A stretch of 64,000 nt of DNA, taken from NCBI GenBank assembly GCA_938074205.1, contig CALJES010000004.1, positions 62,001 through 126,000 of the forward strand, given 5' to 3'. The translations under genes and the position numbers were made by a program. Under the pieces are notes generated by a model. It saw only the letters and a program-made list of their open reading frames with translations. It was not told the DNA's origin and ran no database searches. Shown piece after piece: positions 1,935 to 6,311 of this stretch (positions within the stretch are counted from its first letter, which is position 1; each line of letters starts with the position of its first letter). The DNA comes from an uncultured bacterium. Its GTDB lineage: Bacteria; Armatimonadota; UBA5829.

Positions 1935-2768
1935 ATGAAAGGCGTATACGACTGCAAAGTAGCGGCACACACATATGAGGCGCCTGATGTTTATCGGTTG
2001 ATCCTTTCGTGTTCCGAGATAGCTTGTCAGGCTCAGCCAGGCCAGTTCGTAAACGTGAGAGTTTCATCCACAACCGACCCTTTGCTGCGAAGACCGTTTT
2101 CAATTCAAGCTGCGCATCCGGATGAGGGCACGTTCTCGCTGCTTTATGTAGTCAGGGGAAGAGCTACCAAGTTACTTGCCGGTGTCGGACCCGGTGAAAC
2201 CTTGAGTGTTGTGGGACCGCTCGGCAGACCATTCAACGTAGATTGCCCAAACGACGCGGTGCACATTCTCGTCGCAGGAGGCTGCGGGGTTGCACCGCTG
2301 CATTTCTTGTGCGCGTCGCTTATCAGCAGATTCGGACCTGACAGAGTGATTGTTCTAGCCGGCGCTCAAACGAAGGAATCTGTACTGTGCGAAGGTGACT
2401 TTCGATCTCTTGGAGCCAATATCCGCGTGTGTACTGACGACGGCACCTATGGCACTAAAGGTGTCGTAACCGATTTGCTTTGGGACATCTTGTCTGACAC
2501 ACCATCAGATGTGAAATCCTCTAGGGTGCGGGTGTACGCCTGCGGACCACGGGAGATGCTGAGGGAAGTTGCTCGAATCTGCCGGGAAGCACGAGTTGAA
2601 AGTTGCCAGGTCTCGCTGGAAAACTTCATGGCCTGTGGGTTGGGGGTGTGCCTCGGCTGTGTACAGAAGTTGAGGCGACAAACTTGCCCTGGCACTGACG
2701 ATTGGCACTACGAGCGTGTATGTACCGAAGGCCCCGTGTTCGAAGCTAGCGAGGTTATATGGGATTAA
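1935..2768 (+). CDS. pyrK: Dihydroorotate dehydrogenase electron transfer subunit
   Basis: FAD- and [2Fe-2S]-containing partner of type 1B dihydroorotate dehydrogenase; it passes electrons from PyrD to NAD+ in pyrimidine synthesis. A ferredoxin-reductase-like FAD domain (RRPFSI, about residue 52) precedes an NAD domain (AGGCGVAPL). Four cysteines near the C-terminus (C234, C239, C242, C263) match the cluster-binding pattern. The ATG at 1935 is preferred because PyrK proteins typically begin at this point (MKGVYDCKV); the open frame extends upstream to 1818 but that part has no family character. No good ribosome-binding site is seen at 1935. The last 10 bp overlap pyrD, which argues for translational coupling. 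Confidence 0.93.
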   Translation: MKGVYDCKVAAHTYEAPDVYRLILSCSEIACQAQPGQFVNVRVSSTTDPLLRRPFSIQAAHPDEGTFSLLYVVRGRATKLLAGVGPGETLSVVGPLGRPFNVDCPNDAVHILVAGGCGVAPLHFLCASLISRFGPDRVIVLAGAQTKESVLCEGDFRSLGANIRVCTDDGTYGTKGVVTDLLWDILSDTPSDVKSSRVRVYACGPREMLREVARICREARVESCQVSLENFMACGLGVCLGCVQKLRRQTCPGTDDWHYERVCTEGPVFEASEVIWD

Positions 2769-3724
2769 ACGGACGGAACAATTTGGCTCGGTCCGAACCG
2801 GTTTCCGGTTCTTCAACACCGCGTCTAGCAGTGCGCATAGGTCGCATCGAAATGAAGAACCCGGTAACTGTAGCCTCGGGCACGTTCGGCTTCGGCCAAG
2901 AGATGGCCGAGTTTTATGACCTTTCTAGGCTTGGCGCTATCACTGTAAAGGGCACTTCGCTTTTTCCATGGCGCGGCAACGAATACCCTCGCACGGTAGA
3001 GACGCCTTCAGGTCTTCTCAACGCCATTGGACTCCAAAACGACGGAGTCGATTCCCTGATCAAAGACAAGATTCCCTATCTCAGACAATTCGATGTGCCC
3101 ATTATTGTCAACGTGGTAGGGCACAGCGTGGAGGAATATGCAGAAGTTGCCGATCGCCTAAATGACGTGGAAGGTGTGCACGGTCTAGAACTAAACATTT
3201 CCTGTCCTAACGTTCGGGAGGGTTGCTTGGCATTCGGATCCACACCCCAGGCAACGGCTGAGGTTGTAAGTGCTGTTCGCAAAAGAACTAAGCTGACCCT
3301 GATCACAAAACTCTCACCAAACGTCGGCAACATCGTAGAAATTGCCAGGGCTGCAGTAGAGGCTGGCAGCGACGCGCTTTCGCTGATTAACACCCTGCTT
3401 GGGACAGCAATAGATCCCTGGAGCAGGACTTTTATACTGGCGAACAAAACCGGCGGACTGTCAGGACCCGCGATAAAGCCGGTGGCGCTCAGAATGGTTT
3501 GGGAAGTGGCTCAGAACCTAGATGTCCCGATCATAGGGATGGGCGGGATAATGAGCGCCTTAGATGCTGTTGAGTTCCTGCTTGCAGGCGCTAGGGCAGT
3601 GGCGGTTGGAACTGCCAACTTCGTAAATCCGATGGCTGCCATCGGGGTAATTGACGGTATCGCGGAGTATTTGGAAACTATAGGCGTCTCCGACGTAAAC
3701 GACATAGTCGGAACCGTTTCGTAG
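2759..3724 (+). CDS. pyrD: Dihydroorotate dehydrogenase, class 1B catalytic subunit
   Basis: FMN enzyme that oxidises dihydroorotate to orotate, fourth step of de novo pyrimidine synthesis, working as a PyrD2-PyrK2 complex. The FMN/substrate motifs ASGTFGFG (about 39-46) and LNISCPN (144-150, Cys149 as catalytic base) and the glycine-rich phosphate site GMGGI are present. A class 1B type is supported by Cys as the base and by the adjacent pyrK. The ATG at 2759 follows GAGG at 2750-2753 and lies inside the end of pyrK. About 20 N-terminal residues precede the usual family start, so a slightly later start is possible. The next gene, 120 bp away, has its own strong ribosome-binding site. Confidence 0.95.
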   Translation: MGLNGRNNLARSEPVSGSSTPRLAVRIGRIEMKNPVTVASGTFGFGQEMAEFYDLSRLGAITVKGTSLFPWRGNEYPRTVETPSGLLNAIGLQNDGVDSLIKDKIPYLRQFDVPIIVNVVGHSVEEYAEVADRLNDVEGVHGLELNISCPNVREGCLAFGSTPQATAEVVSAVRKRTKLTLITKLSPNVGNIVEIARAAVEAGSDALSLINTLLGTAIDPWSRTFILANKTGGLSGPAIKPVALRMVWEVAQNLDVPIIGMGGIMSALDAVEFLLAGARAVAVGTANFVNPMAAIGVIDGIAEYLETIGVSDVNDIVGTVS

Positions 3725-3844
3725 AGGTCCCAGTTTCACTGCTTTGTGTTTTGAGAAGAAGCTTTAGAGGGTAACTAAGACTCTGAGCAACGGCACAGCC
3801 GTGGCCAGGGCAAAGATAACAATAAAAGGAGGATAAGAAAGGCA

Positions 3845-4249
3845 ATGCCCGCATTTTCAGATCCGTTTTACGGAAATGTGCCGCCTAAGAAACTGAGCCT
3901 GGGGGAATTGATTAGAGCTATCAGGTTGAATATCGCTGCTGAAGAGGAAGCGGCGGCGATATATGAGGCTCACGCTGACGCAACTGACAATCCTCTGGCG
4001 CGCAAAGTTCTGCTGGATATAGCGAACGAGGAGAGGGTTCACGTAGGCGAGTTCGTTGAACTCCTGGATATCCTTACAAAGCAAGAGGAAAAAGCTTGGA
4101 TGCAGCAGGGCTACGACGAAGTGAAAGAACTCGCTGAAGAAGTTGCAAGGGGAGACCTGGAGCCCGCAAGCCCTGCGGAAAAGGCTGGCGAGGCAGCCAG
4201 CGCTGAATCTGGCGAACAGGTCACAATTGGGTCTCTAAAGGAGGATTAG
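3845..4249 (+). CDS. Encapsulated ferritin-like cargo protein
   Basis: Small ferritin-like iron oxidase predicted to be packed inside the encapsulin shell encoded next. The two-helix core resembles the Flp domain fused to encapsulin in Pyrococcus furiosus: an EEE cluster (33-35), Tyr40-Glu41, then a NEERVHVGEF stretch with a likely Glu62/63...His66 metal site. After an Ala/Glu-rich linker (about 101-125), the C-terminus carries a classic encapsulin targeting peptide, VTIGSL (126-131). A two-helix chain of this length must oligomerise to build four-helix ferroxidase sites (known for the family). The start ATG follows AAAGGAGG at 3825-3832. Iron storage or detoxification is the likely role; the stop codon is 2 bp before the shell gene. 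Confidence 0.92.
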   Translation: MPAFSDPFYGNVPPKKLSLGELIRAIRLNIAAEEEAAAIYEAHADATDNPLARKVLLDIANEERVHVGEFVELLDILTKQEEKAWMQQGYDEVKELAEEVARGDLEPASPAEKAGEAASAESGEQVTIGSLKED

Positions 4250-4251
4250 AC

Positions 4252-5058
4252 ATGGCAAGCAAGTTTCTTGGGCGTGAAGACGCCCCATTCGAAGAAAAGA
4301 CCTGGAAAGCCCTGGACGAGACGATCATAAGCACCGTGAAAGCCCATCTGTCTGGCAGAAGGCTTCTGGATATTGAGGGTCCGTTTGGTCTGCATACGAA
4401 AACTATCCCTTTGGAAGATGTTGTTGTGGCTGAGGACAAGGTGGGCTTATACTCAAGCCGGGTTCTTCCGGTCCCTTTGATAGGGACAACGTTTACGCTC
4501 TCAGCCCGCGATCTGGCCACCTTTGAGAAGACAGGGTTTTCGCTTTATTGCAAGGAGATAGCAGATGCCGCAGTGTCGATCGCTCAGGCAGAGGACTCTT
4601 TAGTATTCGAGGGCAACAAGGACCTCGGCATAGAGGGTTTGCTAACTGCGAAGGGCGCAATTTCGGTTAAGCTCAGCAACTGGCAAGAAGTAGGTGCGGC
4701 AGCTCAGGACATTATTAAGGCTTTGACTGCTTTAGACGAAGCTGGCTTCCACGGACCATACGCTCTTGCACTGGCGCCGAGCCTTTACAATATGCTTCAA
4801 CGGGTTTATCCTAATGGGAACCTTACTGAAGCCCAGCACATACAGAACATGGTAGGCAGCAAGATTGTCAAAGCGCCAAGCATCAAGCAGGGCGGTGTGC
4901 TGCTTGCATCGGGCAAGCAGTATGCATCTTTGGTTATAGGCCAGGATTTGATGGTTGGGTTTGTTGGGCCGACAGGTTCCGGCTTCGAGTTCCAGGTATC
5001 AGAAAGCTTGGTGCCGAGGATAAAGGTTCCGTCATCCATTTGTGTGCTGAAATCTTAG
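4252..5058 (+). CDS. Encapsulin shell protein (family 1, HK97 fold)
   Basis: Capsid-like protein that self-assembles into a nanocompartment around the ferritin-like cargo. It reads co-linearly with Thermotoga maritima encapsulin: an N-terminal FLGREDAPF segment that would bind the cargo peptide, the LLDIEGPFG strand (about 39-47), an ATFTL-like strand (TTFTLSA), a GPYALAL P-domain motif and VIGQDLMVGF near the end. At 268 aa it is the usual length. The ribosome-binding site AAAGGAGG (4237-4244) lies within the last codons of the cargo gene, so the two are probably coupled and made in a fixed ratio. The Trp that stacks on flavin in the T. maritima shell does not seem to be conserved (inference from alignment by eye). 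Confidence 0.95.
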   Translation: MASKFLGREDAPFEEKTWKALDETIISTVKAHLSGRRLLDIEGPFGLHTKTIPLEDVVVAEDKVGLYSSRVLPVPLIGTTFTLSARDLATFEKTGFSLYCKEIADAAVSIAQAEDSLVFEGNKDLGIEGLLTAKGAISVKLSNWQEVGAAAQDIIKALTALDEAGFHGPYALALAPSLYNMLQRVYPNGNLTEAQHIQNMVGSKIVKAPSIKQGGVLLASGKQYASLVIGQDLMVGFVGPTGSGFEFQVSESLVPRIKVPSSICVLKS

Positions 5059-5071
5059 CCAGTCCCCTGTT

Positions 5072-5122
5072 TCGCCGGCAGACATAGCTGTATCAACTTA
5101 CTAGGTGGGGGTGTCTGCCGGC
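5072..5122 (+). terminator. Long perfect hairpin ending the encapsulin operon
   Basis: GCCGGCAGACA at 5072-5082 pairs perfectly with TGTCTGCCGGC at 5112-5122 (11 bp, GC-rich), with a 29-nt loop. TTTGCGTTTG follows. It begins 13 bp after the encapsulin stop codon and is most simply a transcription terminator or an mRNA 3'-end stabiliser. Confidence 0.7.
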
Positions 5123-5153
5123 TTTGCGTTTGCCGTAGGTTAGATGGAGCGCC

Positions 5154-6311
5154 GTGAATAGTTATCCGACACACTCGTCCTTGGCCGTCAAAATACGTCC
5201 AGAAGTCCGCCGCGAGGAATATATAGACTACATGACCTTCCAATCCAATCGGCGGCCTCTTTTTACCGAGCTTTTTGGGCCTCTGGTTGGCCTCAAAGAG
5301 GAGTGGCAAGCCCAGGGTGCATCTCCTGAAGAGCTCGATCTATCGGCGTTCCGATATCGCGCACCGATGCGCGCAAGAATCTCGGTGAATACTGGGTGGA
5401 TAGGCGGAGGGGAAGAGGTTGTCCTGGAGGAAACTGAGGACTATATCATCATCCGAGATCGAATGGGCAGACGTGTGAAGCTTGTCAAAGGCTGCGCTAC
5501 TATCCCACTGCCTTTGGACTACCCTGTGCGAGATTTTAACGACTGGATGAGGATAAAGCATCACTACGAGTACTGCGATGAGCGCTTTCCTGAGGGATGG
5601 GAGCAGGCGGCGTCGGCGCTTATTGCTCAGGGATGGGCGTCGGTTGTCAGTATTCCAGGCGGATTTGATGAGATTCGACAACTGATGGGTGAGGAAAATG
5701 CTTGCCTCGCCTTCTATGACCAGCCGGAACTGGTGCGGGACATATTAGAGACTATGGCAGAGACCTCACTTCGCGTGTTAGATAGGGTTTCCTGCATTGT
5801 TCCAGTAGACGAATTGACCGTACACGAGGATCTCGCGGGCAAGAGCGGTCCACTGATAGGCCCCAAGCAGTTTGACGAGTTCGTGGCGCCTTATTATCGC
5901 CGGGTTTGGGATATGGTTTTCCGGCGGGGTACCAGACTTTTCAGCGTGGATTCGGACGGCAACATTGAACCACTGCTACGTTCGTTTGTTGAAGCCGGGG
6001 TCAACGTAGTCTATCCAATGGAGCCTGCAGCCGGTATGGACGTAGTCAAGGTAAGACGCGAGTTCGGAACACGGCTGGCATTTATGGGAGGTATAGACAA
6101 ACACGTTTTGCGGCGCAGTTGCAGGGAGATAGAGCGCGAGCTCGAATACAAGATACCACCGATGGTGCACACCGGGGGCTGTGTGATTTCCTTGGATCAC
6201 CGCATTCCCAACGGTACTCCTCTAGACAATTACAGATTCTACATAGACAAAGTGTGGGAAATAATCGACCGCGAATCCGTTGCAATACGCAGAAACAACC
6301 CGCCAAGCTGA
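5154..6311 (+). CDS. Uroporphyrinogen decarboxylase (URO-D) family protein
   Basis: TIM-barrel protein of the URO-D/cobamide-methyltransferase superfamily, 385 aa. The C-terminal half has the family's layout: VDELTVHEDLAGKSGPLIGP, a FSVDSDGNIEPLL strand, AFMGGIDKHVL and an MVHTGGCVISLDH segment. These divergent paralogues, common in plant-polymer-degrading bacteria, are usually not haem enzymes; some act as corrinoid methyltransferases and most are unassigned, so no reaction is claimed. The start is GTG at 5154 with GGAG 5 bp upstream. It lies after the encapsulin terminator and converges with the GH2 gene. No other haem gene is nearby. Confidence 0.82.
   Translation: MNSYPTHSSLAVKIRPEVRREEYIDYMTFQSNRRPLFTELFGPLVGLKEEWQAQGASPEELDLSAFRYRAPMRARISVNTGWIGGGEEVVLEETEDYIIIRDRMGRRVKLVKGCATIPLPLDYPVRDFNDWMRIKHHYEYCDERFPEGWEQAASALIAQGWASVVSIPGGFDEIRQLMGEENACLAFYDQPELVRDILETMAETSLRVLDRVSCIVPVDELTVHEDLAGKSGPLIGPKQFDEFVAPYYRRVWDMVFRRGTRLFSVDSDGNIEPLLRSFVEAGVNVVYPMEPAAGMDVVKVRREFGTRLAFMGGIDKHVLRRSCREIERELEYKIPPMVHTGGCVISLDHRIPNGTPLDNYRFYIDKVWEIIDRESVAIRRNNPPS

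What the first reader, a model, noticed from the sequence alone, without database searches (positions are those of the whole stretch)
3825..5122. Encapsulin nanocompartment operon with a ribosome-binding site inside the cargo-targeting codons
A 134-aa ferritin-like cargo with a C-terminal VTIGSL targeting peptide is followed 2 bp later by a 268-aa encapsulin. The AAAGGAGG that serves the shell gene (4237-4244) is made of the cargo's last codons (Lys-Glu-Asp region), so the targeting sequence and the shell translation signal overlap in the DNA. The unit has its own strong ribosome-binding site at the start and an 11-bp perfect hairpin at the end. The cargo is of the Pyrococcus Flp type but encoded separately.
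Basis: partly seen in the sequence, partly recalled or inferred. Interest (0 to 1): 0.8.

Follow-up and report, generated by a model that had tools for sequence, protein, structure and literature searches.

The report
Ordinary encapsulin iron-storage gene pair
This is a standard two-gene bacterial nanocompartment operon (a small iron-oxidising ferritin-like protein and the shell that packages it). The ribosome-binding site for the shell gene sits in the last codons of the cargo gene, as it does for many tightly spaced genes in the same genome.

Summary
The sequence facts are right. Cargo 3845-4249 (134 aa, tail VTIGSL-KED) is followed after 2 nt by shell 4252-5058 (268 aa). AAAGGAGG lies at 4237-4244, and an 11-bp perfect inverted repeat follows the shell. 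The cargo passes NCBIfam's encapsulin ferritin-like cargo model and the shell passes the family 1 encapsulin model. Predicted folds match P. furiosus, M. xanthus, H. ochraceum and R. rubrum EncFtn, and M. xanthus EncA. Ferroxidase residues are invariant in 75 cargos, and 79 of 80 named relatives carry a targeting-peptide cargo directly upstream. It is a Flp/EncFtn family 1 system from an Armatimonadota MAG lineage, of a kind already catalogued.

The claimed novelty is ordinary. The shell's ribosome-binding site uses the codons after the targeting core and covers one base of the core. The sister species shares this; the rest of the family does not. It recurs in 24 of 27 surveyed pairs spaced 10 nt or less (1 of 53 more widely spaced), and changed state at least 9 times on the shell tree. 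In 464 kb of this genome 18 gene pairs do the same. Coupling of encapsulin operons is already discussed in print. A separately encoded cargo is the bacterial norm. Low interest.

The parts
3825..3832 (+). AAAGGAGG, likely ribosome-binding site of the cargo gene (12 nt before ATG)
   Evidence: sequence; a purine-rich AAAAAGGAGGA stretch at the corresponding place in sister L059
3845..4249 (+). EncFtn/Flp cargo gene, 134 aa, ferritin-like ferroxidase with C-terminal targeting peptide
   Evidence: NF058679 109 bits, cut-off 90; PDB matches EncC 7s8t and P. furiosus 5n5e; E33, E35, Y40, E63, H66, E69 invariant in 75 cargos
4220..4237 (+). codons of the targeting-peptide core VTIGSL
   Evidence: sequence; a recognisable core in 80 of 81 surveyed loci, window included; published consensus in PMC11202242
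4237..4244 (+). AAAGGAGG, likely ribosome-binding site of the shell gene, within the post-core codons Lys-Glu-Asp
   Evidence: sequence; GGAGG kept in sister species
4252..5058 (+). family 1 encapsulin shell gene, 268 aa, HK97 fold
   Evidence: NF041155 255 bits, PF04454 258 bits; model pLDDT 91.5, Foldseek best M. xanthus EncA E 3e-30
5074..5122 (+). 3' hairpin (11-bp perfect stem, 27 nt between arms), possible terminator or 3' stabiliser, no U-run
   Evidence: equivalent hairpin with compensatory change at L059:3819-3891

Best explanation
A two-gene operon of an Armatimonadota bacterium encodes a family 1 encapsulin iron compartment. The cargo is an EncFtn/Flp two-helix ferritin-like protein. 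By homology it assembles into a decamer whose dimer interface forms the di-iron ferroxidase centre (E33, E63, H66). Its disordered C-terminal tail ends in VTIGSL, which docks in the shell protein's inner pocket so that the cargo is packed while the shell assembles. Fe(II) is oxidised inside and stored as mineral in the shell. Ribosomes finishing the cargo gene stop 2 nt before the shell start; the shell's Shine-Dalgarno sequence therefore has to lie in the last cargo codons, and translation of the two genes is probably coupled. Shown here: gene identities, order, spacing, fold prediction, invariance of catalytic residues and conservation of the targeting peptide, and the position of the Shine-Dalgarno sequence. 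Inferred: decamer, iron oxidation, encapsulation, coupling.
For: NCBIfam and Pfam models over cut-off for the shell (PF04454, NF041155) and NF058679 for the cargo. PDB sequence matches to EncC, P. furiosus EncFtn domain and EncA. AlphaFold models match EncFtn and encapsulin chains. Ferroxidase ligands and G129 invariant in 75 cargos. In 79 of 80 named relatives across Armatimonadota, Chloroflexota, methanogens, Planctomycetota, Thermotogota and others, a cargo with the peptide is directly upstream of the shell. Synteny conserved in the sister species. Baseline for Shine-Dalgarno sequences placed in the upstream gene in this genome. Coupling of encapsulin operons already proposed (PMC8229669, PMC7925596); coupling depends on very short spacing (PMC10666635).
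Against: No experiment on this organism. The genome also holds ferritin-family genes, so this need not be the main iron store. The capsid size (T number) cannot be told from sequence. The upstream Shine-Dalgarno spacing of 12 nt is long.
Confidence: 0.95

Rival explanations
1. The overlap is a purposeful device: the targeting-peptide tail and the shell's Shine-Dalgarno sequence are co-selected so that only ribosomes that have just made a complete, targetable cargo start the shell, fixing stoichiometry.
For: The overlap recurs in Armatimonadota, methanogens, Chloroflexota, Thermotogota and Fibrobacterota. With a Lys-Glu tail, AAG GAG is used in 11 of 14 pairs with gap 10 nt or less against 3 of 12 with wider gaps (Fisher p 0.016), although background codon use would give about 0.31.
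Against: Closest family members outside the genus lack it. Lys-Glu tails also occur with wide gaps, so the residues do not depend on it. Only 3 phylogenetically independent pairs, sign test p 0.5. The same layout is common for other gene pairs in this genome, so tight spacing alone explains it.
Confidence: 0.12
2. The cargo is a rubrerythrin- or manganese-catalase-like enzyme dealing with peroxide rather than iron storage.
For: Pfam's only above-cut-off match for the cargo is Rubrerythrin, with Mn_catalase and COQ7 below cut-off; genome has other ferritin-family genes.
Against: The encapsulin-specific NCBIfam model scores 109 bits against 28 for Rubrerythrin; best folds are EncFtn. The Pfam labels of encapsulin Flps are known to scatter over these families (PMC8346489).
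Confidence: 0.05

Closest known systems
Flp/EncFtn family 1 encapsulin operons (Rhodospirillum rubrum, Haliangium ochraceum, Thermotoga maritima)
   Same: Cargo gene upstream of shell gene, two-helix ferritin-like cargo with EXXH, C-terminal targeting peptide
   Different: Only ordinary sequence divergence noted; here the gap is 2 nt and the Shine-Dalgarno sequence falls in the post-core codons (gaps in those three organisms were not measured here)
Myxococcus xanthus EncA with EncB and EncC
   Same: Closest solved shell and closest cargo by sequence; LTVGSL-type targeting peptide
   Different: Shell here lacks about 13 residues present in EncA after residue 57; EncC is encoded apart from the shell in M. 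xanthus (PMC8229669)
Pyrococcus furiosus Flp-encapsulin fusion (5n5e, 2e0z)
   Same: Cargo domain fold is the best Foldseek match (E 5e-4, 41% identity)
   Different: Here the cargo is a separate protein with a targeting peptide, the usual bacterial layout

Membership tests
Family 1 encapsulin shell | HK97-fold shell protein matching PF04454/NF041155 over curated cut-off | tested here: met
   258 and 255 bits against cut-offs 24.3 and 100; Foldseek to EncA E 3e-30
Family 1 encapsulin shell | Self-assembly into an icosahedral compartment | not testable with these tools
   needs expression and electron microscopy
Flp/EncFtn cargo (FLP-TP class) | Match to encapsulin ferritin-like cargo model | tested here: met
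   NF058679 109 bits, cut-off 90; the stricter TIGR04535 is not passed (76.6 of 125)
Flp/EncFtn cargo (FLP-TP class) | Two long helices plus a short further one, EXXH and ferroxidase Glu conserved | tested here: met
   helices 19-46, 50-77, 81-101; E33, E63, H66 invariant in 75 sequences
Flp/EncFtn cargo (FLP-TP class) | Disordered C-terminal tail with targeting peptide of the L(F)xV(I)xxL(I) type | tested here: met
   VTIGSL at residues 126-131, V in place of L/F at the first position; mean pLDDT falls to 55-66 after residue 110; relatives LTIGSL, FTIGSL, TTIGSL
Flp/EncFtn cargo (FLP-TP class) | Decamer with ferroxidase activity, packaged in the shell | not testable with these tools
   needs purification and iron assay
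Archaeal Flp-fusion encapsulin | Flp domain fused to the shell N-terminus | tested here: not met
   separate ORFs with stop at 4247-4249
IMEF cargo | Four-helix monomer without EXXH | tested here: not met
   EXXH present; two main helices
Translationally coupled gene pair | Gap within about -8 to +10 nt with Shine-Dalgarno sequence in upstream gene | tested here: met
   gap 2 nt, AAAGGAGG wholly before the stop; range from PMC10666635
Translationally coupled gene pair | Downstream translation depends on upstream translation | not testable with these tools
   needs reporter experiment

The most novel reading that the evidence does not exclude
In compact encapsulin operons the codons just after the targeting core are repeatedly recruited as the shell gene's Shine-Dalgarno sequence, so their synonymous choice (AAG GAG) is under selection for shell translation and ties complete cargo synthesis to shell synthesis.
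Probability: 0.3. Interest if true: 0.3.

Novelty: new member of a known kind. Interest (0 to 1): 0.15.

Why it matters
It adds a well-supported Flp encapsulin operon in an Armatimonadota lineage; no paper in the searched library links encapsulins to that phylum under the name 'Armatimonadetes', though 'Armatimonadota' was not searched. The comparative set gives a clean, testable case for translational coupling setting the cargo-to-shell ratio, an idea already in the literature. Otherwise it is routine annotation.

Tried and rejected
Rfam had no match in 3600-5300. Folding of the junction showed no special structure hiding the shell start: z -0.7 in the window, +1.5 in the sister. A promoter scan of 3600-5300 found nothing above chance. 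Literature search for encapsulin with Armatimonadetes: none. The synonymous-codon test is suggestive but not phylogenetically independent. The plasmid collection holds only shells under 60% identity; the five listed are 30-32% identical. The idea that the encapsulin is the sole iron store was rejected, since ferritin-family genes exist elsewhere in the genome.

Full report
Observation. The two ORFs, their spacing and the sequences are as described. The cargo gene is 3845-4249 (134 aa) and the shell gene 4252-5058 (268 aa), 2 nt apart. The last cargo codons are GTC ACA ATT GGG TCT CTA AAG GAG GAT TAG (V T I G S L K E D stop), and AAAGGAGG is at 4237-4244, 7 nt before the shell ATG. It takes one base of the core's last Leu codon and otherwise lies in the Lys-Glu-Asp tail. 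The inverted repeat 5074-5084/5112-5122 is perfect and folds well on its own (z -3.8), but no U-run follows it and the terminator scan does not call it. Folded in a wider 87-nt window its z is only -1.7.

Identity. The shell passes PF04454 and NF041155 by a wide margin. Its closest solved relative is Myxococcus xanthus EncA, and its model has pLDDT 91.5. The cargo passes NF058679, encapsulin nanocompartment ferritin-like cargo (109 bits, cut-off 90). The stricter TIGR04535 is matched below its cut-off. PDB matches by sequence are M. xanthus EncC and EncB and the Pyrococcus furiosus domain. By predicted fold they are P. furiosus 5n5e, EncC, EncB, H. ochraceum and R. rubrum EncFtn; only the best of these is under E 0.001. 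In an alignment of 75 cargos, E33, E35, Y40, E63, H66, E69 and G129 of the targeting core are invariant. E63 and H66 form the EXXH motif and E33 is the aligned ferroxidase glutamate; assigning these roles rests on the published EncFtn family description (PMC11202242).

Where it comes from. The window's genome is a 3.0-Mb, 19-contig assembly with one shell gene. The nearest named relative is MAG Armatimonadota A05DMB-I-24 (81% identical shell). Its neighbourhood is the same: zinc-ribbon protein, the PyrK-like and PyrD dihydroorotate dehydrogenase pair, cargo, shell, URO-D-family protein, then a beta-mannosidase-like gene on the other strand. A genome-collection scan with the shell alignment gave 80 loci, from Armatimonadota, Chloroflexota, methanogens, Planctomycetota, Atribacterota, Thermotogota, Fibrobacterota and others. 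In 79 of the 80 a cargo with a recognisable targeting core lies directly upstream. In this family of the phylum 7 of 15 genomes hold the shell.

The overlap of targeting tail and ribosome-binding site. In the sister species the layout is the same (TTIGSL-KED, GGAGG, gap 2 nt). In the other family members the cargo ends at or soon after the core, most often TIGSLK-stop, the gap is 17-66 nt, and the Shine-Dalgarno sequence is in the spacer. Of 80 loci with a recognised core (window included), 24 of 27 with gap 10 nt or less have at least 4 nt of the Shine-Dalgarno sequence in the cargo gene, against 1 of 53 with a wider gap. It never covers more than one base of the core. On the shell tree the state changes at least 9 times, against about 22 when shuffled: clustered but labile. 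In 464 kb of this genome there are 47 co-directional pairs with gap -8 to 8; 29 have a Shine-Dalgarno sequence wholly within the upstream gene, 18 of them with 5 or more matching bases (this pair included), and AAAGGAGG itself occurs in two further pairs. So the overlap is what close spacing produces. Lys-Glu tails with short gaps use AAG GAG in 11 of 14 cases, against 3 of 12 with wide gaps (p 0.016). The cargo genes' own codon use would predict about 0.31 in the short-gap group. But only 3 phylogenetically independent comparisons exist, so this is a lead only.

Prior knowledge. [quoted passage not shown] FLP-TP, fusion, short and IMEF classes are reviewed in PMC11202242. [quoted passage not shown] PMC7925596 makes the same point about cargo loading. 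PMC10666635 shows that coupling requires overlaps or very short gaps and is enriched among complex subunits.

Mechanism. Shown here: gene identity, order, spacing, predicted folds, conserved catalytic and targeting residues, and position of the Shine-Dalgarno sequence. Inferred from the family: decameric ferroxidase, packaging by VTIGSL, mineral storage in the shell, and coupled translation. The genome also has two other ferritin-family genes, so the compartment is not the only candidate iron store.

3' hairpin. The sister species has an inverted repeat at the same place (L059:3819-3833/3877-3891, 14 of 15 paired). The core stem changed from GCAGAC/GTCTGC to GCGGAC/GTCCGC, that is, a compensated change, and the loop length differs (27 against 43 nt). 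This supports a real RNA element after the operon, but with two species and no U-run its role (termination or message stability) is undecided.

Verdict. A correct reading of an ordinary operon. New member of a known kind, interest 0.15.

Noticed in passing
L002, L003, L004, L005, L006, L013, L016, L029, L030, L031 (same-phylum genomes): Ferritin-like proteins matching the cargo model but ending before any targeting peptide, with no shell ORF detected in the short flanks held (at most about 1.5 kb); they resemble the short s-FLP class.
   Followed up: partly
L012, L018, L020, L022, L025, L027 (same-phylum genomes): Cargo homologues with clear LTVG[SD]L-type tails but no adjacent shell gene; 5 of the 6 genomes have a shell elsewhere (the sixth assembly is 78% complete), so these look like secondary cargos.
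   Followed up: partly
L119 (cargo 2609-3001) and L135 (cargo 2603-3001), Fibrobacterota: Cargo proteins continue for 14-15 residues, with several Cys, beyond the targeting core and overlap the shell start by 4 nt.
   Followed up: no
L121: Thermoleophilia shell whose ORF is preceded in frame by a long extension (ORF starts about 400 nt before the conserved shell start), with only a weak ferritin-like hit upstream; the one relative without a recognised targeting core.
   Followed up: no
window 5074-5122: 3' hairpin with a compensated base change in the sister species but no U-run.
   Followed up: partly
G000 C6:105060-105464 and C6:327306-327683: Two ferritin-family (PF00210) genes elsewhere in the window's genome.
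   Followed up: no
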